A stretch of DNA of 36,599 nucleotides from a virus. A program made the position numbers and the translations under genes. The stretch is from positions 1-36,599 of the IMG/VR virus record IMGVR_UViG_3300028394_000175; one strand, written 5' to 3'. The notes below the pieces were generated by a model. It did no database searches and was not told where the DNA came from. It saw nothing but the letters and a program-made list of their open reading frames with translations. The first letter of the stretch is position 1; each line of letters starts with the position of its first letter. Shown here in pieces: positions 1,809 to 36,599 of the stretch.

Positions 1809-4184
1809 ATGGCCACACTCCTTTACGGTAACATCTCCCAGAAAACGGCCAGCTACACGATTGAGCCTGGTTCGATTACCCTGCCTACAGTCGTGCAGGG
1901 AGATACCTTTACGCTTGCGGTGCGCCTTACCGAGACGTCTAACAACACCACCACAGTCACCGCGCCTTCCATCTACTCCGCTCGTCTCAGCTATGGCCCG
2001 GTGGATGTGGCACCTACGGCTGGCACGTTCAAAGTGCGGGTCAACGCAGTTACATCCAGCGCTATAACCTTAGGATCTACGGCCGCCAGCGTGGCCGCCA
2101 TCCTCAACACCATCTCAGCCGCTACCGGCTGGAGCGTCACGGAAGATCAAGGCTCCTACATCGTAGGCAGGACGGCCAACTGGACAACCACAAGCGGCAT
2201 CACCATCGTTCAAAACGAGCTAATCCCAGACAGCTTTGTCCGGGTGACTAGCTATTCCGCAAACAACACTTTCTACCAAGAGCTGCGGCCGATGCAGTCG
2301 CCGTTAGCTTATACTAGCGCATTCGGGCTAATCGTTCCGCCCGCTCCTACCATCACCCGCGTAGTCACTGGATATAGCGACTCCACCACGGGCGTTTTTG
2401 TGAACGAGGTGCAACGGCTTTACATCCCGCCAGCGTTTGATACCACCTATCAGATCTATCGCGGGACAGCTCGCACCGCCTTGCTCAGCAAGGACGATGG
2501 GTCGACTGAGATCGAAGCCGCGCTGATGCAAGGCTGCGTCACGGTCGGGGCAGGGGAGATCTTCCTAGTTACCAACCCACAAAACTACACCGCCGACATT
2601 GAGTTCGCAGGCGCTATGAGTGGAGCGACCCACAGCTTGCTAACGGTGGCTGTGCCTATATCGCCACAGGGCGACGTCACATTCGATCTGGATCTAAATA
2701 CCCAGGGGATGCTGGCCGCTTTGCGTGGCGATTTTGAGGTCACGCATCCGCTGACTTGCGAAATCGGAATTAACTACGGATCAGTAGCTACGCCCAACGT
2801 GCAGTACGTCACCGTGTTCCAGCAGAACATGACCGTGCAGGCCGACGGTGCTTGGACAGGATTGGCAGCCGCACAGCGGATCAACTGGCTCAATCCGCCG
2901 CAGCCGGTCAACTATATCCCTTTTACGACAGACCAGGTCATCACCGGCATTCAGAGCTTTACCGCAGTTGTGACAGGCGCAGGCCCGTGGACGATCGCAC
3001 ACAATCTAGGCACGGAAGCGATCCACGTCACTGTTAGAGAAAATGTTTCTGGTGGGGCTATACTACAGCAAACATCTCCATACGTAGGTGTGGGAGATAT
3101 TTCTGTCAGCAGTTCGACGAGTCAGTCAATCATTGTCACAAGACTTATAGGAACAGTACCAACAGCCGGCTGGGCCGTAATGATCTCCTCCGCAGGGCCG
3201 ACAAGCGTGTTCCAGGCGCACACCCATACGATTGCTCAAGTTGTAGATTTACAAGATACGCTAAACGCAATCGGCACACGGCTAACTACACTAGAGAACG
3301 TCCTGCCTAATGGCGTGGGGATCATTAACCAATCCGGCGTGAATACCACTCCGCTAACCATGACCATCCCGGCACGCTCTGAGGTGCTGTTCTCGCAAGA
3401 TATAGAAGGCGCTTGGGGAGATGGCGGAATCGATCAGTCGAAACTACCCGTCCGTGGCCCTAGCTTACTGCGATCATTCTCCGGCCTAGCAAATAACTCT
3501 AACATTACGACAGCACCGACGGCCGCCGGAGCCTACATTTATTCTGGCGGGATTGAGCTGGCACCTATGGGCTACATCCCTGGCGATACCGTGCCACCCA
3601 GCGGGATCGTTATTTACGACGAAGGCCGCATTTACCAAGGCCGCCAAGATGGAACAAACAAAACCTACTACCCCGTGCTCTACGAGGTTGAGCTTTTCCG
3701 CGTACCAGTTAACGCAAACCAATTTAGAGTCGGCCGGACGCTTGAGGTTAAGTTTGGCCTTATTTTACAAATGCTGGCTAAGACAGACGCCCAGTGGCGT
3801 GTAGTTATTGATGCGGCCAATTTAAGCGAGGTGACTAGCCCCGCCACCCAAGGGATGAACATCTCTAGCGCAGACTACAACCAAGACAAACTACTCGATC
3901 ACCGAGTGATGCTTACTCAAACCCTGGCGCCGCATATTCTCGGCGTGCGTCTGACGCGGTCTTTGAGTGGTGAAGATATAGTCATTACCGCAGACAAAAA
4001 CCTTTATGGAACTTACGAGAGCACCATCGGTACTCCCGCTGGAGCGAGCTTTATTTTACGTGCCCGGCTGATGAACTTTGATATTGCGAATACTGCAGAC
4101 GACGCACGCGGATGGGTGGGCTACTCCCTAAAAGGCGTCGAGAATGACACGATTGGCGGTGAAGTGAAGGTGACAATCTCATGA
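1809..4184 (+). CDS. Large tail fibre or baseplate-like structural protein, 791 aa
   Basis: ATG at 1809 follows the previous stop by two bases. The composition is rich in T, S, V, N, G and A with almost no cysteine, typical of beta-rich phage fibre proteins. Near residues 28-42 a segment VVQGDTFTLAVRLTE resembles the start of a small domain also seen in the next two genes (RQGDAHDLAVFF and EQGTDWTRDLFL), reminiscent of BppU-type upper-baseplate N-terminal domains. Around residue 475-505 a histidine/threonine-rich HTHTIAQVVDLQDTL segment leads into a short coiled coil, a common junction before a fibre's distal part. The C-terminal third may be the host-contacting domain. Function is inferred from composition and position; no specific receptor can be named. 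Confidence 0.75.
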   Translation: MATLLYGNISQKTASYTIEPGSITLPTVVQGDTFTLAVRLTETSNNTTTVTAPSIYSARLSYGPVDVAPTAGTFKVRVNAVTSSAITLGSTAASVAAILNTISAATGWSVTEDQGSYIVGRTANWTTTSGITIVQNELIPDSFVRVTSYSANNTFYQELRPMQSPLAYTSAFGLIVPPAPTITRVVTGYSDSTTGVFVNEVQRLYIPPAFDTTYQIYRGTARTALLSKDDGSTEIEAALMQGCVTVGAGEIFLVTNPQNYTADIEFAGAMSGATHSLLTVAVPISPQGDVTFDLDLNTQGMLAALRGDFEVTHPLTCEIGINYGSVATPNVQYVTVFQQNMTVQADGAWTGLAAAQRINWLNPPQPVNYIPFTTDQVITGIQSFTAVVTGAGPWTIAHNLGTEAIHVTVRENVSGGAILQQTSPYVGVGDISVSSSTSQSIIVTRLIGTVPTAGWAVMISSAGPTSVFQAHTHTIAQVVDLQDTLNAIGTRLTTLENVLPNGVGIINQSGVNTTPLTMTIPARSEVLFSQDIEGAWGDGGIDQSKLPVRGPSLLRSFSGLANNSNITTAPTAAGAYIYSGGIELAPMGYIPGDTVPPSGIVIYDEGRIYQGRQDGTNKTYYPVLYEVELFRVPVNANQFRVGRTLEVKFGLILQMLAKTDAQWRVVIDAANLSEVTSPATQGMNISSADYNQDKLLDHRVMLTQTLAPHILGVRLTRSLSGEDIVITADKNLYGTYESTIGTPAGASFILRARLMNFDIANTADDARGWVGYSLKGVENDTIGGEVKVTIS

Positions 4185-6478
4185 GCTTATATTTTGGAAC
4201 ACTAGCCGGCACCGCTGGTTCTTCTGGCTCTACAGACGCTACTGGCTCAGCCGCTAGGTTTTATAGGCCGACCGGCGTTGCCGTTGATGCAGCAGGGGCT
4301 GTCTTTGTGGCGGATCTCAGCAACCACACCATCCGCAAAGTAACTAGCGCAGGCGTAGTAACGACCCTAGCTGGCACAGCAGGTTCTTCTGGCAGCACAA
4401 ATGCCACCGGCTCCGCCGCTAGGTTTAGTAATCCCGTCGGCGTATCAGTCGATACTGCCGGCAACGTTTTCGTGGCGGATCGCAATAACCACACCATCCG
4501 AAAGGTAACTAGTGCAGGAGTGGTGACGACACTAGCAGGCACTGCTGGCTCTGCTGGCTCAACCGACGCTACTGGCTCTGCCGCTAGGTTTTATAGTCCC
4601 TACGGCGTAACAGTCGATAGTGCCGGCAACGTTTTTGTGGCGGATAGTAACAACCACACTATCCGCAAAGTAACCAGTGCAGGAGTGGTAACTACACTAG
4701 CAGGAACAGCTGGCTCTGCTGGCTCAACCGACGCTACTGGCTCTGCCGCTAGGTTTTATACTCCTGTCGGCGTTTCCGTAGATACCGCAGGAAATGTTTT
4801 TGTGGCGGATTACTCCAACCACACTATCCGCAAAGTAACTAGTGCAGGAGTGGTGACGACACTAGCAGGAACAGCTGGCAGTACTGGCAGTACAGACGCT
4901 ACTGGCTCAGCCGCTAGGTTTTATTTTCCCGCAGGCGTATCTGTCGATACTGCCGGTAACGTTTTTGTGGCGGATCTCAATAACCACACCATCCGAAAGG
5001 TAACTAGCGCTGGCGTAGTTACTACCGAGGCTGGTCTAGCTCCTAGTTCAGGCTCTAACAACGGCCTAGGCTCTGCCGCTAGGTTTTCAAATCCCTTCGG
5101 CGTATCAGTCGATACTGCCGGCAACGTTTTTGTGGCAGATTACAACAACCACACCATCCGCAATGCCGTTTCATCCGCTCCTGCCACGGTCACTCTCTCT
5201 GGCCTGTCAAAAACCTATACTGGCTCTGCCCAGGCTCCTGCCACCACCGTCTCACCGTCCGGCCTTGCTATTGAGCTGACCTACGCTGGCACGGCCGCCA
5301 GTCTTTCGGCCCCCGTCACCGCTGGCTCTTATGTAGTCACCGCCAGTGTCGTGGATAATTTCTACTACGGCACGACCAGCGGCGTAGTCACGATTAGCAA
5401 GGCTGCCCAAACCATTACCTTTGCCTCTATCCCCAGCAAGTTTGTCGGCTCGGGCGCTTTTGTCGTAGCACCCACATCGACCGCAAATCTCACCGTCGCC
5501 CTTTCCTCTAGCAACACCGCCGTCGCTACTGTCTCTGGCTTTTCTATTTCTCCTATCGGAGCTGGCACTACCACAATCTCAGCCACTCAAGCAGGCGACA
5601 CTAACTACCTAGCGGCCGCTACCGTTACCCAACTTCTCACCGCCACTACTGCCCCCATCGCGCAGACCATCGCCTTTGCTGCTCTTTCGCCTCGCCGGGT
5701 TGCGTCTTTGAAGGACGTCTACTCGGCCGCCTCCGTTATCGCTTCCAGCACCAGCCTATCTTTTACCGACGCTACTAGCGTGGCCCAGGCTAACGCTCGG
5801 TCTAACGGATCCTTTGCCCTAGTGGCCACAGCATCTTCCGGTCTGCCCGTTACCTTCACCTCCACCGTTACTGCCGTTGCCTCTATCGTGGGTAATATCT
5901 GCACCCCCGTCACTCCAGGCGTGACCAACATCGTGGCAGCCCAAGCTGGATCTACCGCTTACTCCGCTGCCTCTACCGTCACGCAATCACTCGTCATCGT
6001 GGAAAAGCAGTTCGCCTGGCTAGATCTGCGCTGGGAGCTGACCGATCTTCAGATCGATGCCCGTACCCGTGCCGTCTCAAGCGCAAAAGGGAATGGGGCC
6101 GTGCTCACCATTCGCCAGGGAGACGCTCACGACCTAGCCGTTTTCTTCACCGATCCAGCCGGGGCCGCCATCCTTATGGCGCCAACTGCGCTAAAACTTT
6201 GTATTCGCGAAAAAACAAATCGGCGTCCTGTTGTTTTGGAGACCACCGCCTTTACCCCAGCAGACTTTGGCGGCTTTGATCCGTACTATCAAATCACCTT
6301 CACGGCCAACAACGATTCGCTCCAACGCTTTGTCGCGTTTAATGGCGTAGCCGATAACTCTGACGCTATCCCAGCCATAGGCGAAGTCGAATGGATCTAC
6401 GGGGGCAAGGTCTACAGCTCCAAACCATTCACCGTGAATATCGTTCCAGAAATTGAGCGGGAAATATCGGACGTATAA
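4181..6478 (+). CDS. NHL-repeat beta-propeller tail protein with MBG- and Big-like domains, 765 aa
   Basis: ATG at 4181 overlaps the upstream stop as ATGA. Residues about 8-335 are six tandem copies of a 55-residue unit with the NHL signature GVxVDxAGNVFVAD followed by NHTIRKVTSAGVVTT; six units would close a six-blade propeller. Residues about 340-410 resemble an MBG-type domain (LSKTYTGSAQAPATTVSPSG), followed by two Big-2/cadherin-like Ig domains (SIPSKFVGSGAF..., ISATQAGDTNY). The last roughly 150 residues begin with an IRQGDAHDLAVFFTDP segment resembling domains in the genes on either side, and probably anchor the protein to the tail. Propeller and Ig modules of this kind are common in secreted bacterial proteins and suggest adhesion to host surface polymers. 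The unusual point is a host-like adhesin joined to a tail-anchoring end. No signal peptide is seen, consistent with a virion protein. Confidence 0.85.
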   Translation: MSLYFGTLAGTAGSSGSTDATGSAARFYRPTGVAVDAAGAVFVADLSNHTIRKVTSAGVVTTLAGTAGSSGSTNATGSAARFSNPVGVSVDTAGNVFVADRNNHTIRKVTSAGVVTTLAGTAGSAGSTDATGSAARFYSPYGVTVDSAGNVFVADSNNHTIRKVTSAGVVTTLAGTAGSAGSTDATGSAARFYTPVGVSVDTAGNVFVADYSNHTIRKVTSAGVVTTLAGTAGSTGSTDATGSAARFYFPAGVSVDTAGNVFVADLNNHTIRKVTSAGVVTTEAGLAPSSGSNNGLGSAARFSNPFGVSVDTAGNVFVADYNNHTIRNAVSSAPATVTLSGLSKTYTGSAQAPATTVSPSGLAIELTYAGTAASLSAPVTAGSYVVTASVVDNFYYGTTSGVVTISKAAQTITFASIPSKFVGSGAFVVAPTSTANLTVALSSSNTAVATVSGFSISPIGAGTTTISATQAGDTNYLAAATVTQLLTATTAPIAQTIAFAALSPRRVASLKDVYSAASVIASSTSLSFTDATSVAQANARSNGSFALVATASSGLPVTFTSTVTAVASIVGNICTPVTPGVTNIVAAQAGSTAYSAASTVTQSLVIVEKQFAWLDLRWELTDLQIDARTRAVSSAKGNGAVLTIRQGDAHDLAVFFTDPAGAAILMAPTALKLCIREKTNRRPVVLETTAFTPADFGGFDPYYQITFTANNDSLQRFVAFNGVADNSDAIPAIGEVEWIYGGKVYSSKPFTVNIVPEIEREISDV
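4202..5170 (+). repeat. Six tandem 165-bp coding repeats (NHL blades)
   Basis: The DNA repeats with a 165-base period, five near-identical copies and a more diverged sixth. Phrases such as ggcaacgtttttgtggcgga and aaccacaccatccgcaaagt recur in most copies. Differences are concentrated in two codon patches per unit: just before the GV of each blade and after VAD. Such long identities can expand or contract by homologous recombination and may confuse short-read assembly. Confidence 0.9.
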
Positions 6479-12187: not shown

Positions 12188-12553
12188 ATGAGCTCAGTGC
12201 GTCTCAACGATACGGCCATGAATCTGCGGAAGCAGGATCGAGCTCTTTCACTTCGCCAATTAGGTGCCGCTTACGGCCTTGGCTATGTGCGGATTAAGCA
12301 AATGCGGGAACTGTCAGGCTTTCCGCTGATTGCTGGGAAGATAATGCCCTCTGACTTTGATAAGTGGAGGCTGATGCAGACTGGCCTAAATTCACCGCGT
12401 CCCGCAGATCGTCTACGCAGTGCCGCTGGTAAAGCTCATGCACTAGCGTCGAGGAGTGATTCACAAGTCTCATGGCGACAGATTGAGAGCAGCCTGAAAG
12501 CCGCAGTCGAGTCACTCGGGTTACCCGGAGCGAATGAAAGCAGTGACGCTTAA
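12188..12553 (+). CDS. Excisionase/HTH-like protein, 121 aa, overlapping int in antisense
   Basis: ATG at 12188 follows the RHH gene by six bases. Residues about 18-60 (LSLRQLGAAYGLGYVRIKQ, then MRELSGFPLIAGKIMPSDF and DKW) match the winged-helix pattern of MerR-like excisionases and small DNA-binding proteins, with a final helix entering via PSDFDKW. The rest (from about residue 65) has low-complexity S/A/R composition and lies antisense to the int 3' end, with 260 bases of overlap. Its place beside int and in the first rightward operon supports a directionality factor. The C-terminal half may be dispensable. Confidence 0.55.
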   Translation: MSSVRLNDTAMNLRKQDRALSLRQLGAAYGLGYVRIKQMRELSGFPLIAGKIMPSDFDKWRLMQTGLNSPRPADRLRSAAGKAHALASRSDSQVSWRQIESSLKAAVESLGLPGANESSDA

Positions 12554-13391
12554 GCCCGCAAATGTTGAGCAGGCGACGCCAGCAAAGCGAGGCTCGCGTG
12601 CTGGGCACGATGCAAGTGACCTCGCGTCCCTCGGCCTTCATTCTGGCGAGCATCGGTTCGATAGCGGCCGGGATAGGGATGCTAAAAGATTTGCCCGTGC
12701 CACCCTTGGGGCAGGGGAACGTAAGGATGCGGTTCTTCAGATCCACGCAATCAAGCGGGATCTGCGTCTCACGAAGTCGGCAGCCAGTAGCCAGGGCAAT
12801 CTCAAAGCTAACTTTCATCCATTCGGGCACGCCTTCCACGGCCAAAGCCTTCCGGGTAATTTTTATTTCATTGTCCGAAAAGACGGGTTTTACGCGGGCT
12901 ATCGGGCCCCTTTTAATTCTGTAATCCAAAAGGGCAACGGAGTCCATTTTGCCGAGCAGTCGTCCTTGGCGGTGAATCCATTTAAGAATCTTCAGATCTT
13001 GGCAGGCTTGGTTGCGTCCAGCCTTGCCGCCGGACGTGCGGGGAAGGCTTTGGCGCCATCGCAAATAAATCTCACAATCATTTGCAGAAAACGCTTGCAA
13101 GGTTGTTTTTTTCTCACTAATAAATCTCGCCAGATGACGCCACGAATTTTTGTAATAAACTTTTGTCAGAGGGCAAACGGGGTGATTTTCAATCAAATCA
13201 TCAACCCAGTCGTGGCCGCAATCTTTTCGCTTTTCGTTAACGCCAAGTCGGGCTGCGTCAGCCGTTGCCTTTGCGCGATGCAGAGTATTGTCGATTCGGT
13301 AGCGGGTGCTTTTGCTACGCCATTTTCCAGTCGGGTCTTTAAAACGTATAAAGAACCAAGGGCTGCCGCGTTTCTGGTAAGAATACGCCAT
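12294..13391 (-). CDS. int: Tyrosine recombinase integrase, 365 aa
   Basis: ATG at 13391 on the minus strand. The N-terminus SYQKRGSPWFFIRFKDPTGK is the usual three-stranded arm-binding domain, residues about 65-150 a SAM-like core-binding domain, and 170-335 the catalytic domain. Catalytic residues are visible: Arg205 in ATGCRLRE, Lys229 in the beta hairpin, His286 and Arg289 in HSLRVTR, His312 in VNHSS and Tyr321 in HELYQRH. It would recombine the tRNA-Ser-type attP about 80 bases upstream of its start with the host copy. Its 3' end is convergent with and overlaps the excisionase-like gene, so rightward transcription makes RNA antisense to int. Confidence 0.93.
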   Translation of the reverse strand: MAYSYQKRGSPWFFIRFKDPTGKWRSKSTRYRIDNTLHRAKATADAARLGVNEKRKDCGHDWVDDLIENHPVCPLTKVYYKNSWRHLARFISEKKTTLQAFSANDCEIYLRWRQSLPRTSGGKAGRNQACQDLKILKWIHRQGRLLGKMDSVALLDYRIKRGPIARVKPVFSDNEIKITRKALAVEGVPEWMKVSFEIALATGCRLRETQIPLDCVDLKNRILTFPCPKGGTGKSFSIPIPAAIEPMLARMKAEGREVTCIVPSTRASLCWRRLLNICGLKRHCFHSLRVTRVTRLRLSGCSQSVAMRLVNHSSTLVHELYQRHCVDDLRDAVNLGQSASASTYQSQRALSSQQSAESLTVPAFA

Positions 13392-27292: not shown

Positions 27293-28168
27293 ATGGCAAA
27301 TAGTCTCGCCTCAGTCAGCAACGGAAAGTTAGTTTCTCAACGCGCACTTAGCTTGCTCGTCGAGCAATTCCCTTTCCTCACGTCCGCTTACTCGGACTTC
27401 AGTGACGCCTCCGCCCGTAAAGGCGACATCATCACCACTCATCTAGTAACTGCGGCGACTGCCGTAGGCTACAGCACCACAGCCGGCTACGTCGCGGGTG
27501 ACCGCACGCAGACGGATTGCATCGTGACCTTGAACAACCTTGTTCATAGCACCGTGGCAATCAATGACGACGAAGCAGCCAGCTCCTCGATCAACTTGAT
27601 CGAGCGCTTTGCCGCCTCGGCCGCACACGCCTTGGGCAAACAGATGGTCGACACCTTGCTCGGCACGATCAGCGCCGCGTCCTACACCTCCACGATGACC
27701 GTGGCGGCAGACGTTCTCAGCTACCGCTCCATCGTTTCGATGGGTGTGACGCTGGATAGCAACAAAGTGCCTAGCGCCAGCCGCTACGCGATTGTTAGCC
27801 CGAACAACAAAGCCAGCTTGCTCAACGACTCCTCGATCGTGGCGAATGCCCAGATCCAAGGTGACGCAATCCGCACCGGCTCAGTTGGAATCGTGAACGG
27901 CATCGAAGTGTTTAGTTATCCTTCGCTCCCTTCCGCGATCAGCAAAGGCTTCGCGGCCCAACAGGAAGCGCTTCTCGTGGCGGCCCGTCTGCCCGAAGTG
28001 CCCAGCGATTACCCTGGCAGCGTAGAAAACGTCACGGAACCCGTGTCTGGCCTGAGCTTGCAAATGCGCGAGTTCTACAACCCGACCCTCGGAACCCGTA
28101 ACCGTTCCTACATCTTGCTCTACGGCTGCGGCCGTGGATCGACAGCCTCACTGGTTCGCTTGGTCTAA
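27293..28168 (+). CDS. Major capsid protein, 291 aa
   Basis: ATG at 27293 with AAGAAGG about ten bases upstream. Codon use is biased towards common codons (abundant GCC, AAC, ATC), as expected for the most highly expressed gene. The order after a protease-scaffold gene, the N-terminal LVSQRALSLLVEQFPFLTSAYSD, the central ASSSINLIERFAASAAHALG helix (spine-like) and the A-domain-like SRYAIVSPNNKASLLND support an HK97-fold coat protein. A perfect hairpin terminator follows within 25 bases. No decoration protein (gpD-like) gene is recognised. Confidence 0.85.
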   Translation: MANSLASVSNGKLVSQRALSLLVEQFPFLTSAYSDFSDASARKGDIITTHLVTAATAVGYSTTAGYVAGDRTQTDCIVTLNNLVHSTVAINDDEAASSSINLIERFAASAAHALGKQMVDTLLGTISAASYTSTMTVAADVLSYRSIVSMGVTLDSNKVPSASRYAIVSPNNKASLLNDSSIVANAQIQGDAIRTGSVGIVNGIEVFSYPSLPSAISKGFAAQQEALLVAARLPEVPSDYPGSVENVTEPVSGLSLQMREFYNPTLGTRNRSYILLYGCGRGSTASLVRLV

Positions 28169-28188
28169 GTTAGAGAATCATCTGGGTT

Positions 28189-28219
28189 GCCCGGTGCATC
28201 GGGGGGTGCACCGGGCTTT
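28189..28219 (+). terminator. Intrinsic terminator after the capsid gene
   Basis: GCCCGGTGCA (28189-28198), loop TCGGGGGG, TGCACCGGGC (28207-28216): a perfect ten-pair GC-rich stem followed by TTT. The short U tract suggests partial termination, which would set capsid expression above that of the downstream glycosyltransferases and tail genes. Confidence 0.75.
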
Positions 28220-28234
28220 CCCAACCTAAAAAAT

Positions 28235-30376
28235 ATGAATACCCCCCTTGTCTCCCTAGCTATTATCGTCGGCCCCAACGAAGGGGAGCTAGTTGCCCGT
28301 TTAATTAAGTGCACCGCCGGCCTATGGGACGAAGTCGTCTGCGTGTCGGCTTGCGGTAAAAATGATGCGCAGGGTGTGCGTATTTGCGCACAGGAGGCCG
28401 CTGGCGAGGCTTTGGTCTGGGGAGAGTATCTGAACGCACCCGAAAACGCCGACTGGCCCCACATCGATCATTTTGCTGCCGCTCGTAATAAAGCCTTTAG
28501 CCTGGCGACGGGCAAATATGTTGTCTGGTTTGATTCTGACGACTTGCTTGACCCAGGGCAGGCGAAGCTACATCGGGACGCAGTTGAACAGCGGGAGGCG
28601 CAGGAAAAGGGCTGGGAGATCCTTGTAACCCGGTACGACGTGCAGAACAGCGGAATGCGGGACAATCGCAGAGAAAGAATTTTCCGGCGCCAACCTGACG
28701 GCAGCTTGCCCGCCATCTGGGAACGAGCGGTACACGAAAGGGTAAAGCCGGTGCCCAACATGGCGGTGGGATTGGCGGATCACCTCGTAGTCATTCACGC
28801 CCCGAACACCTGCAAGAAAAATAGCAGCGAACGAAACAAGCGCATCCTTGGCACTCTTTTACAGCATACAGGTATGAATCTGTACTACTTAGCCCAAGAG
28901 GGATATCTGCGCGGGGCATATCAAGAATCAATCGGCCCCACTCTTTTAGGGCTAGAGCATCCAGACCTAGGCGAAACCGAACGCTACCAGCTCTACTGCA
29001 TGGCTGGCGTGATGTGCGCCGATCATGTAAAAAAACGGAAATACTTGGGCAGGGGAATTACACTTTGCCCGACACGCCGAGAGGCTTACGGCCATCTGGC
29101 TAGCGTGCTTATCGATGAGGGTAATTTTAGCGAAGCCGTCAGACTTTTAAACTTAGTGGAAATGTTGCCTAGGCCGCAGGGCGTGATCTGGAATCTAGAC
29201 GCCAAGTGGTACGGACACCTGCCCAAAATGCTTATCGAACAGTGCTTGCGAGCCGTCGGCCAAACCGCAGACGCCGATCGCTGCGTGCGTGAATCTTTCC
29301 GTCAAAACTGGGGGCAGATTACCATGGTCTTTAACGGGCCATTTATGGATTGCTTTAGATTGCATAAATTCTTTGTCGATACCTCGGACAATCCAGCAGC
29401 CATACAGGCTTTATTTATAACCGACCCTGGCACCGACGTAGCAGGCAAAAGGATTCACATCGTAAAAGATGCGGAGGAGGCCACCGCAAAAGCGCTGGGT
29501 GGCATTGTGCTCTTTGTGAAATGTGCGGCAGACACAATCTGCCCGCCGCTGCGCTGGGACGTGGATCTGCTATCTGCCGGGACTGTTCCAGCCGCCGCCG
29601 TTTTACTGCCTAGCCCAGTCGATAGGGTGGGCAAAGTAGTGGTGGGACTCACCACCACTCCCACCCGAATCCATAAGATACTGCCGACAATTCAAAGTCT
29701 GCTGCGCCAAAACCGCCCGGCAGATCGGATTATTTTGTCGGTGCCCGATAAGCTGGCACGGACTGGGGAACGCTTTGGCGATATACCTAAAGAGCTACAA
29801 GCGCTGGCCGATTCTGGTAAATTAGAAATTCACAGGACACAAGATTACGGCCCGGCCACCAAGTTTGTCGGGCTGATGGAATCGGAGGCCGATCCCGAAG
29901 CGCAGCTGGTCTGGCTAGACGACGACATTCTTTACGGCCCCACACTTTTGCAGGTGCTCGCCGACGAGCTAAAAAACAAAACAAAGACGGCGTTAGGCAT
30001 CTGCGGATTTTTTATGACGGGCAAGACTGGCTATGCCATCGCCCCCGACCATCTCGGCGCGGCCGAGATTCTTGAGGGATTTGCAGGGGTGACTTGCCGA
30101 CGCCAGGACATGCCCAAGGCAGAGCTATGGCCGGCGATGACCGCCAAGCAGTTTGTCGCGCTTAGCCCTAAAGAGCGTGCCAGTTTTATGGCGGACGATT
30201 TTGTTATAAGTCACGCCTTGCGGGCCAACAACATCGCAACTCTAGTCTGCAACACGCCAGATCTAAACCGTACTAACGGCCTGCGCATTAGGCCGGAGGG
30301 GCTAGGAGAAGATGCCCTGCAAAATAATAAAGGCACCGGCGGTAACCTAGCGGCCTATGCGCTTTTAAAGGGGTGA
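28235..30376 (+). CDS. Two-domain glycosyltransferase with central helical repeats, 713 aa
   Basis: ATG at 28235 is preferred; upstream in-frame codons from 28187 would run through the terminator. Residues 1-200 are a GT2-type domain with HFAAARNKAFSLATGKYVVW and the DSD metal motif at 100-102. The middle (about 215-380) is TPR-like (YGHLASVLIDEGNFSEAVRL). Residues about 465-713 form a second transferase-like domain: VVVGLTTTPTRIHKILPTIQ and LVWLDDDILYGP with Asp562-564. Two active-site-like triads in one protein suggest sequential addition of two sugars. Location among virion genes suggests that capsid or tail proteins, not host surface polymers, are the targets, but this is inference. Confidence 0.85.
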   Translation: MNTPLVSLAIIVGPNEGELVARLIKCTAGLWDEVVCVSACGKNDAQGVRICAQEAAGEALVWGEYLNAPENADWPHIDHFAAARNKAFSLATGKYVVWFDSDDLLDPGQAKLHRDAVEQREAQEKGWEILVTRYDVQNSGMRDNRRERIFRRQPDGSLPAIWERAVHERVKPVPNMAVGLADHLVVIHAPNTCKKNSSERNKRILGTLLQHTGMNLYYLAQEGYLRGAYQESIGPTLLGLEHPDLGETERYQLYCMAGVMCADHVKKRKYLGRGITLCPTRREAYGHLASVLIDEGNFSEAVRLLNLVEMLPRPQGVIWNLDAKWYGHLPKMLIEQCLRAVGQTADADRCVRESFRQNWGQITMVFNGPFMDCFRLHKFFVDTSDNPAAIQALFITDPGTDVAGKRIHIVKDAEEATAKALGGIVLFVKCAADTICPPLRWDVDLLSAGTVPAAAVLLPSPVDRVGKVVVGLTTTPTRIHKILPTIQSLLRQNRPADRIILSVPDKLARTGERFGDIPKELQALADSGKLEIHRTQDYGPATKFVGLMESEADPEAQLVWLDDDILYGPTLLQVLADELKNKTKTALGICGFFMTGKTGYAIAPDHLGAAEILEGFAGVTCRRQDMPKAELWPAMTAKQFVALSPKERASFMADDFVISHALRANNIATLVCNTPDLNRTNGLRIRPEGLGEDALQNNKGTGGNLAAYALLKG

Positions 30377-31047
30377 ACAAAACTCTGACCGTGTCGGGCT
30401 ATAATCGGCCTGACTACTTTACGCAAACCCTGCGAGCGCTTTCAGCCTGCGACGGCGTGGGCGAGTACGACATCGTCTGCGTGTTAGATCGTTCGGATAA
30501 AACCGACGAGCTTGTAGAAATTGCCAAGCAGATGGGCCTGACCACGCTTAGTCCAGTCGAGCACATGGGCTGCGGGGCAACAATCCGCTACTGCATGGAA
30601 ACAGGATTTCGCAACAGCGATTTTCATGTGCACCTAGAGGATGATACCGTGCCTAGCTCAGACTGCCTGCGCTGGTTTGAGTGGGCGGCAAACTGGGCGT
30701 CACCGATGACTCTGACGATCAGCGCCTACAATCAGCACGGCGGAGAAGCAGAGCCAGAGATGGCAAGTTTTAGAAAGTGGTTTACCCCGTGGGGCTGGGC
30801 CACTTGGCGCAGCCATTGGGAAAAGTATTTGGCGCCTAGCTGGGATAACTTTTTTTGGGACGGAGGCGTTCAGCGCATTCGATCCGAGCTTGCCATGGGG
30901 GAGCTATATCCGCGAGTCAGTCGCATACAAAACATAGGAGCAACGCGGGGCGCTTTTTGTCCGAGCGCAGAGTTTCACCAAGAAAATCATCACGCCACCC
31001 GAGTGGCCACAGCACAAGAAAAGAGAACACGATGGATAGTAATATAG
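30373..31047 (+). CDS. Glycosyltransferase, GNT-I/GT2-like, 224 aa
   Basis: GTG at 30373 overlaps the previous TGA. Features: LTVSGYNRPDYFTQTLRALS, YDIVCVLDRSDKTDE and the metal motif HVHLEDDTVPS (Glu89-Asp90-Asp91), then FTPWGWATWRSHWEKY, which resembles acceptor-site segments of bacterial GT2/GNT-I-like enzymes. It probably adds a further sugar in the same pathway as the upstream two-domain enzyme. It overlaps the methyltransferase by 16 bases. Confidence 0.85.
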   Translation: MNKTLTVSGYNRPDYFTQTLRALSACDGVGEYDIVCVLDRSDKTDELVEIAKQMGLTTLSPVEHMGCGATIRYCMETGFRNSDFHVHLEDDTVPSSDCLRWFEWAANWASPMTLTISAYNQHGGEAEPEMASFRKWFTPWGWATWRSHWEKYLAPSWDNFFWDGGVQRIRSELAMGELYPRVSRIQNIGATRGAFCPSAEFHQENHHATRVATAQEKRTRWIVI

Positions 31048-31589
31048 AGCGCGGCAGGGTATGCGACGAAAACCCGTCGATCCACTGGGCGCACATGCCC
31101 GTGGACAGTCAAAGCAGAGTCCTAGATCTGGGCTGTGCTTTTTGGGACGAGCCACTACGGGCGGATCGTCTTGGCACGCCATACTTTTACCTAGGACAGA
31201 AGCCTGCATTTTACCTCGGCATCGATCAAAACAACGCGGACATCGCGCTGCTAACTCATGAGCTAGGCGCTCATTTTTTTGAAGCGTCAATAGATAGCCC
31301 AGCCCAGATCTGTGACTGGATCACAGCTCACTCGATTACTCATATTAAAAGCGATATAGAGGGGGCCGAGGAGCACTTGGCCGCCATTGAAAATGCGTTG
31401 CCCAGCCTTGAAGCGGTGGCAATCGAGACACACGGTGACGCAACTCATCGCAAGATATGCGACTGGATAGATAGACAAGCCATGACCATCTACCGCATTG
31501 ACCAGCAGGGAGACTGCCCAGACGTGTTTATCGTCTACGCCAAAAAACTTTCGGCTGAACCAACTTTGACAACTTGCTCTCAACCGTGA
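31032..31589 (+). CDS. FkbM-like SAM-dependent methyltransferase, 185 aa
   Basis: ATG at 31032 (the frame is open upstream, but this ATG is in the right place to overlap the transferase end). VLDLGCAFWDEP (30-41) is the SAM-binding loop and THIKSDIEGAEEHL (about 103-116) the FkbM signature. FkbM enzymes methylate hydroxyls, often of sugars, so it likely caps the glycan made by the two transferases. The protein is short for the family (usually 200-280) but keeps both key motifs. Confidence 0.8.
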   Translation: MDSNIERGRVCDENPSIHWAHMPVDSQSRVLDLGCAFWDEPLRADRLGTPYFYLGQKPAFYLGIDQNNADIALLTHELGAHFFEASIDSPAQICDWITAHSITHIKSDIEGAEEHLAAIENALPSLEAVAIETHGDATHRKICDWIDRQAMTIYRIDQQGDCPDVFIVYAKKLSAEPTLTTCSQP

Positions 31590-31894
31590 CCGAACTCCAA
31601 ACCCTTATGACTACTGGCGTGGTCGACATGATTTCAGCCAATCCAACTACCGCCACTGTTAGTGGCCTGCCCGTCCGGGGTGTCTACACACCTAACGAAC
31701 AAACGGCAGAGCTGGGCATGGGCGGGTTTGTAAATCCACAGAATGCGGAGTTCGTTTGCCTGACGGCCGCCGTCAGCTTGCCCGCACTAATGACGATCGT
31801 GACAGTAGGCGGATCACCTAAAAGGCTTACCGGCGTACAATCTGACCAGGGGGTGACGACCTTAATCCTCGCAGATCCAGAGGATGTGCGATGA
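31586..31894 (+). CDS. gpFII-like head-tail joining protein, 102 aa
   Basis: GTG at 31586 overlaps the methyltransferase TGA as GTGA; TTG 31574 is an alternative in-frame start adding four residues. The pattern SGLPVRGVYTPNEQTAELG, FVCLTAAVSLPALM, IVTVGGSPKRLTGVQSD and TTLILADPEDVR parallels lambda gpFII (beta-sandwich, 117 aa), the protein that joins head and tail. It resumes the lambda-like order after the glycosylation insert. Confidence 0.65.
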   Translation: MTELQTLMTTGVVDMISANPTTATVSGLPVRGVYTPNEQTAELGMGGFVNPQNAEFVCLTAAVSLPALMTIVTVGGSPKRLTGVQSDQGVTTLILADPEDVR

Positions 31895-36548: not shown

Positions 36549-36599
36549 TCCCCAACGAGCTGAAGGCGGAATCGGGCGACAAGATCCTGCCTAAGTTCA
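36545..36599 (+). CDS. 5' end of the junction-spanning tail gene (partial at window edge)
   Basis: ATG at 36545 overlaps the TGA (36546-36548) of the upstream gene. The frame stays open to the window end and continues at position 3 of the window to the stop at 585-587, giving 196 residues. The N-terminus reads MIPNELKAESGDKILPKF. No family recognised. Confidence 0.8.
   Translation, partial: MIPNELKAESGDKILPKF
36549..36599. repeat. Terminal direct repeat, right copy (circular overlap)
   Basis: Exact copy of positions 1-51. The repeat lies inside a protein-coding gene and has no inverted ends or att-like structure, so it marks the arbitrary point where a circular sequence was opened. Confidence 0.95.

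What the first reader, a model, noticed from the sequence alone, without database searches (positions are those of the whole stretch)
28235..31589. Glycosylation-methylation cassette embedded between capsid and head-tail genes
A two-domain glycosyltransferase, a second glycosyltransferase and an FkbM-type methyltransferase interrupt the otherwise lambda-like head operon behind a terminator. No DNA hydroxymethylase or modified-nucleotide gene is seen, so DNA glucosylation is unlikely. Co-expression with virion genes points to a methyl-capped glycan on capsid or tail proteins, possibly on the Ser/Thr-rich fibres.
Basis: partly seen in the sequence, partly recalled or inferred. Interest (0 to 1): 0.7.

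Follow-up and report, generated by a model that had tools for sequence, protein, structure and literature searches.

The report
Phage virion-protein glycosylation cassette, swappable cap
A temperate bacterial virus known from metagenomes carries, between its shell gene and its head-tail joining genes, a small set of sugar-attaching enzymes that most likely decorates its own particle proteins, and its relatives all keep the first enzyme while repeatedly exchanging the last one.

Summary
Between the major capsid gene and the head-closure gene lie a 713-aa two-GT protein (GTA), a GNT-I-like GT (GTB) and a divergent FkbM-like putative methyltransferase (MTC), in overlapping frames. GTA directly follows the capsid gene in 71 of 71 lineage members with enough sequence; the distant cultured phage P8625 has none there. 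By fold, GTA's N-terminal half matches SunS/ThuS (peptide S-glycosyltransferases) best in the PDB; by sequence it matches the flagellin glycosyltransferase GmaR; TPRs follow, then a KfiA-like domain. GTB's profile matches POMGnT1/GnT-I. No membrane segment, GtrA or hydroxymethylase was found. The third slot is exchanged repeatedly: 41 of 48 complete cassettes hold a methyltransferase-like gene of several kinds, the rest other glycosyltransferases, with at least 16 changes on the GTA tree. Best reading: a short, usually methyl-capped glycan is built on virion proteins in the cytoplasm. The target is unproven; GTA divergence tracks connector/tail genes more than the capsid. The phage is temperate, so host-surface change is not excluded, but no own promoter was found and the genes run into the tail operon. 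New variant of a known kind (mycobacteriophage virion glycosylation).

The parts
27293..28168 (+). major capsid (head) protein, upstream neighbour
   Evidence: phrog_283 E 5.3e-24, phrog_267 E 1.2e-20; 28% identity to P8625 MCP
28188..28222 (+). conserved hairpin between capsid gene and GTA (weak terminator or attenuator)
   Evidence: fold -32.4 kcal/mol, z -4.5; in 49/50 distinct intergenic regions with differing stem sequences
28235..30376 (+). GTA, 713 aa: N-terminal GT2 of SunS/GmaR type (about 2-190), TPR-like helical domain (about 197-410), C-terminal KfiA-like GT (about 460-713)
30373..31047 (+). GTB, 224 aa, GNT-I (GT13)-like glycosyltransferase, invariant EDD motif; start overlaps the end of GTA by 4 nt
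31032..31589 (+). third-slot gene MTC, 185 aa, putative divergent FkbM-like methyltransferase; overlaps GTB by 16 nt and Hc by 16 nt
   Evidence: pairwise match to sister-slot FkbM; no profile hit
31574..31894 (+). head closure Hc1-like protein, downstream neighbour
   Evidence: phrog_82 E 0.0024

Best explanation
The three genes are a cytoplasmic protein-glycosylation pathway made late in infection together with the particle. The N-terminal SunS/GmaR-like domain of GTA, helped by its TPR domain, attaches a first sugar directly to a virion protein (capsid and/or connector/tail protein). The KfiA-like C-terminal domain adds a second sugar, the GNT-I-like GTB a further one, and the third-slot enzyme caps the chain, in this phage probably by O-methylation. 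Shown: gene order, overlaps, domain resemblances, invariant active-site motifs, universal linkage to the capsid gene within the lineage, purifying selection, repeated exchange of the third gene. Inferred: enzymatic activities, the order of steps, late expression, the virion as target, and the purpose (changing the particle surface, for example its stability, adsorption or recognition).
For: GTA fold (AF2 pLDDT 81, pTM 0.58): top PDB matches are SunS and ThuS peptide S-glycosyltransferases (Foldseek E 1e-13; Z 18.7 over 270 residues spanning the GT and part of the TPR region, rmsd 5.5); the C-terminal domain matches KfiA (Z 16.7, rmsd 2.6, 176 residues, 24% identity). Sequence match to flagellin glycosyltransferase GmaR over residues 4-181, E 2e-5, with DxD and HE motifs aligned; these residues are invariant in 32 homologues. 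GmaR transfers GlcNAc to flagellin and has TPRs after its GT domain (PMC9638930). GTB profile hits POMGnT1 and GnT-I. GTA is immediately downstream of MCP in 71/71 distinct lineage members with at least 300 nt downstream. Median dN/dS 0.05-0.12 for the enzymes. Soluble enzymes and no GtrA. Precedent: mycobacteriophages glycosylate capsid and tail tube with their own GTs (PMC12363180; PMC12619734).
Against: No direct evidence that any virion protein is glycosylated. GTA divergence correlates poorly with MCP (Spearman 0.37; partial 0.09) and better with connector/tail genes (0.58-0.75), so the capsid may not be the target. The phage is temperate, so a host target is possible. SunS/GmaR resemblance is by fold and weak sequence; GT2 folds are widespread and polysaccharide or teichoic-acid enzymes (heparosan synthase, chondroitin polymerase, TarP) also match. 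The GTB structure model failed (pLDDT 48). The window's third gene hits no methyltransferase profile.
Confidence: 0.66

Rival explanations
1. Lysogenic conversion: the cassette modifies a host surface glycan or a host surface protein such as flagellin or pilin, for instance to exclude other phages.
For: The phage is temperate (integrase). GmaR, the closest sequence relative with a known acceptor, acts on host flagellin (PMC9638930). KfiA-like and GNT-I-like domains could extend host glycans.
Against: No promoter-like site on the coding strand in 26.5-33.5 kb. The genes overlap each other and the head-closure gene, so expression in a lysogen would also express tail genes. No GtrA flippase in 20 genomes and no transmembrane-like segment. 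Fixed head-operon position in 71/71 lineage members is unlike a mobile moron.
Confidence: 0.18
2. DNA modification: the enzymes glycosylate modified bases of phage DNA.
For: Phage GTs often act on hypermodified DNA (mentioned in PMC12619734).
Against: No thymidylate-synthase/hydroxymethylase family gene in the window or 19 relatives; best matches are peptide and glycoprotein GTs; location in the head operon, not with replication genes.
Confidence: 0.04
3. The enzymes modify a host intracellular protein during infection (host takeover or counter-defence), unrelated to the virion.
For: Protein-type GT architecture does not itself tell virion from host targets.
Against: Head-operon position; exchange of the terminal enzyme suits a surface-exposed, recognised glycan better than a fixed intracellular target.
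Confidence: 0.08

Closest known systems
Mycobacteriophage virion glycosylation (Che8, Corndog, Myrna; Freeman et al. 2023, known to me here only through PMC12363180 and PMC12619734)
   Same: Phage-encoded glycosyltransferases in temperate and lytic phages; capsid and tail tube as targets.
   Different: Target not shown here; different phage lineage; here the enzymes are fixed between capsid and head-closure genes; no direct comparison of the GT sequences was made beyond tblastn of GTA against phage records, which found none.
SunS/ThuS glycocin S-glycosyltransferases
   Same: GT-A domain followed by a helical repeat domain; best fold match to GTA 2-299.
   Different: GTA carries an extra C-terminal KfiA-like GT domain; about 15% identity; acceptor unknown.
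Listeria GmaR, flagellin O-GlcNAc transferase
   Same: N-terminal GT2 followed by TPRs; sequence match over 4-181.
   Different: GmaR ends in an antirepressor domain (PMC9638930), GTA in a second GT domain.
KfiA (E. coli K5 GlcNAc transferase)
   Same: Fold of GTA 465-688, Z 16.7.
   Different: Part of a fusion in a phage; acceptor probably different.
POMGnT1 / GnT-I (GT13)
   Same: GTB profile match over the catalytic region with the acidic EDD motif.
   Different: GTB is much shorter (224 aa), phage encoded, and has no membrane anchor.
FkbM (PF05050) and Methyltransf_24 (PF13578) methyltransferases
   Same: Found above cut-off in the same slot of sister phages; MTC shares the KxDxEGAE region with the sister FkbM.
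   Different: MTC itself reaches neither profile.

Membership tests
Phage virion-protein glycosylation systems (mycobacteriophage type) | phage-encoded glycosyltransferase(s) | tested here: met
Phage virion-protein glycosylation systems (mycobacteriophage type) | glycan demonstrated on capsid or tail protein | not testable with these tools
   needs mass spectrometry of virions
GT2 / SunS-GmaR type protein glycosyltransferase | GT-A fold with DxD motif | tested here: met
   PF00535 E 3.6e-11; D100, D102, D103 invariant
GT2 / SunS-GmaR type protein glycosyltransferase | helical/TPR domain directly after the GT domain | tested here: met
GT2 / SunS-GmaR type protein glycosyltransferase | transfer of sugar to a polypeptide side chain | not testable with these tools
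   biochemical assay needed
GNT-I (PF03071, GT13) | profile match | tested here: inconclusive
   window protein is under the curated cut-off (16.9 against 25.4 bits); all 23 family members match at E 0.01 or better, best 5.8e-9
FkbM methyltransferase (PF05050 / TIGR01444) | profile match of the window's third gene | tested here: not met
   no hit in Pfam or NCBIfam; hhalign to sister FkbM set insignificant; pairwise BLASTP E 9e-5
gtrABC serotype conversion cassette | GtrA flippase and membrane-bound glycosyltransferases | tested here: not met
   PF04138 absent in 20 genomes; no transmembrane-like segment in GTA, GTB or MTC
DNA hypermodification (T4-type glucosylation) | hydroxymethylase of the thymidylate synthase family | tested here: not met
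   PF00303 absent in 20 genomes

The most novel reading that the evidence does not exclude
The cassette is a phage counterpart of serotype variation: a conserved protein-glycosyltransferase core installs a glycan on the particle, and recombination repeatedly exchanges the terminal (capping) enzyme, so that near-identical phages display chemically different surfaces.
Probability: 0.35. Interest if true: 0.72.

Novelty: new variant of a known kind. Interest (0 to 1): 0.52.

Why it matters
As far as the papers read here tell, virion glycosylation in phages is best documented in actinobacteriophages. A lineage-wide cassette fixed in the head operon of an uncultured phage group would show that particle glycosylation is an inherited core trait elsewhere too. 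The exchangeable third gene offers a natural experiment: phages with about 99% identical GTA but a different capping enzyme (L091 and L092) make the effect of the cap directly testable.

Tried and rejected
GTB structure prediction gave pLDDT 48 and was not searched. Two genome-contig scans (GTA alignment, TerL) found no prophage or host relative, so the host is unknown. A direct capsid-GTA co-evolution signal was looked for and not found. A tree-aware test of the GTB / third-slot association did not reach significance, although the raw association is strong (32 of 37 with GTB against 0 of 11 without hold MT24 or MTC; naive Fisher 2e-7). hhalign of MTC to sister FkbM and Methyltransf_24 sets gave nothing. 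My first impression that the phage had no integrase was wrong. DNA glucosylation rejected. The primary mycobacteriophage paper was not held. No tRNA gene in the window.

Full report
What is there. The window is a virus record of 36,599 bases with an exact 51-base direct repeat at its two ends, so it is very probably a complete genome. Head genes run in order: GpA-type terminase, lambda-family portal, protease-like gene, major head protein. After the head protein comes a stable hairpin (28188-28222), then GTA (28235-30376), GTB (30373-31047), a third gene here called MTC (31032-31589), then a head-closure-like gene (31574-31894) and further connector/tail genes. GTA and GTB overlap by 4 nt, GTB and MTC by 16 nt, MTC and Hc by 16 nt, so the cassette is probably tied into one transcript with the genes on its downstream side.

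Conservation. Searches of IMG/VR brought in about 80 distinct capsid sequences. In 71 of 71 with at least 300 nt of downstream sequence (the window included), GTA lies immediately downstream; ten had too little sequence, and the one exception among all capsid relatives held is the distant cultured Verrucomicrobia phage P8625 (28% MCP identity), which has a hairpin after its MCP but no GT there. Part of the set was drawn with GTA itself as query, but the loci were drawn with MCP alone and none of those with room lacks GTA. GTA, GTB and the third-slot enzymes are under purifying selection (median dN/dS 0.05 to 0.12). GTA was not found outside this lineage by the IMG/VR scans, in GTDB genomes or in cultured phages.

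What the enzymes are. GTA was modelled from 32 sequences (pLDDT 81, pTM 0.58). The best matches in the whole PDB are the peptide S-glycosyltransferases SunS and ThuS (Z 18.7 for 7msp, 270 residues, rmsd 5.5), over the GT domain and part of the following helical domain. By sequence, residues 4-181 match the flagellin glycosyltransferase GmaR (E 2e-5), with the DxD and HE motifs aligned; GmaR is a GT domain followed by TPRs (PMC9638930). The middle region matches TPRs of OGT and SPINDLY. The C-terminal domain matches KfiA (Z 16.7, rmsd 2.6, 24% identity) with an invariant DDD motif. The profile of GTB matches POMGnT1 (1.2e-7) and GnT-I (2e-6). MTC hits no profile, yet its C-terminal half aligns with the FkbM protein that occupies the same slot in sister phages (BLASTP E 9e-5; 0 of 500 shuffles as good).

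The exchangeable slot. Across 48 complete cassettes the third position holds Methyltransf_24 (24), FkbM (8, always without GTB), the window type (7), a GT7-epimerase fusion (4, plus one distant version without GTB), a GT34-like GT (2, without GTB), another FkbM (1), and one five-gene version with both methyltransferase types and a GT32-like gene. On the GTA tree the slot content changes at least 16 times (shuffled labels: mean 22.7, minimum 18), so it is partly inherited and often replaced. L091 and L092 have GTA 99% and GTB 97% identical to the window's but different third genes, with the switch points near the end of GTB and the start of Hc. MT24 and MTC never occur without GTB (32 of 37 against 0 of 11), which would fit GTB's product being their substrate, but the tree-aware test has too few independent events and joint recombination of neighbours is an alternative.

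Which target. No tool here can show it. DNA is unlikely, and a gtr-type membrane pathway was not found. GTA divergence is better correlated with the connector/tail genes than with the neighbouring MCP, and two small proteins in that region are 25 and 29% Ser+Thr, while the MCP has 21% and fibre-region proteins 20 to 29%. In mycobacteriophages both capsid and tail tube carry glycans (PMC12363180; PMC12619734); a glycosyltransferase plus methyltransferase pair in Rhodococcus phages was read the same way (PMC13313380). I therefore do not single out the capsid or the fibres.

Temperate life style. An integrase is present in the window and in 17 of 19 related records tested, which makes lysogenic conversion a serious rival. 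Against it: no promoter-like site on the coding strand (a consensus scan that may not fit this host), no gap for a terminator between cassette and tail genes, and the fixed head-operon position.

Verdict. A known class of function (virion glycosylation, if the target is right) in an unusual form: a fused peptide-type plus KfiA-type glycosyltransferase fixed behind the capsid gene of a whole lineage, with a recombining terminal enzyme. New variant of a known kind.

Noticed in passing
12294-13391 (-): Tyrosine integrase; also in 17 of 19 related records tested, so the lineage is temperate.
   Followed up: yes
1-51 and 36549-36599: Exact 51-base terminal direct repeat, suggesting a complete genome (circularly permuted or circularised in assembly).
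   Followed up: partly
28188-28222: Hairpin between MCP and GTA: stem sequence varies between relatives while a TCGGGGGG sequence at the loop is kept in nearly all; U tract weak. May be more than a terminator.
   Followed up: partly
4181-6478: 765-aa protein with NHL repeats (6 stretches) and an MBG domain in the tail-fibre region.
   Followed up: no
L259-L291: A second set of phage contigs carries GTB relatives (36-45% identity), a few next to GT34-, MT24- or FkbM-like genes, but without this capsid or GTA: a similar enzyme toolkit in another phage group.
   Followed up: partly
L140 (same contig as L046): Five-gene cassette: GTA, MTC, GT32-like, GTB, Methyltransf_24.
   Followed up: partly
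L027:7801-9354, L044:7735-9363: Third slot holds a fusion of a GT7-like glycosyltransferase with an NAD-dependent sugar epimerase.
   Followed up: no
L204 (Microbacterium phage Magritte, 3310-5335): GTB relative (27% identity) near another GT and a UDP-glucose dehydrogenase, upstream of terminase and portal.
   Followed up: no
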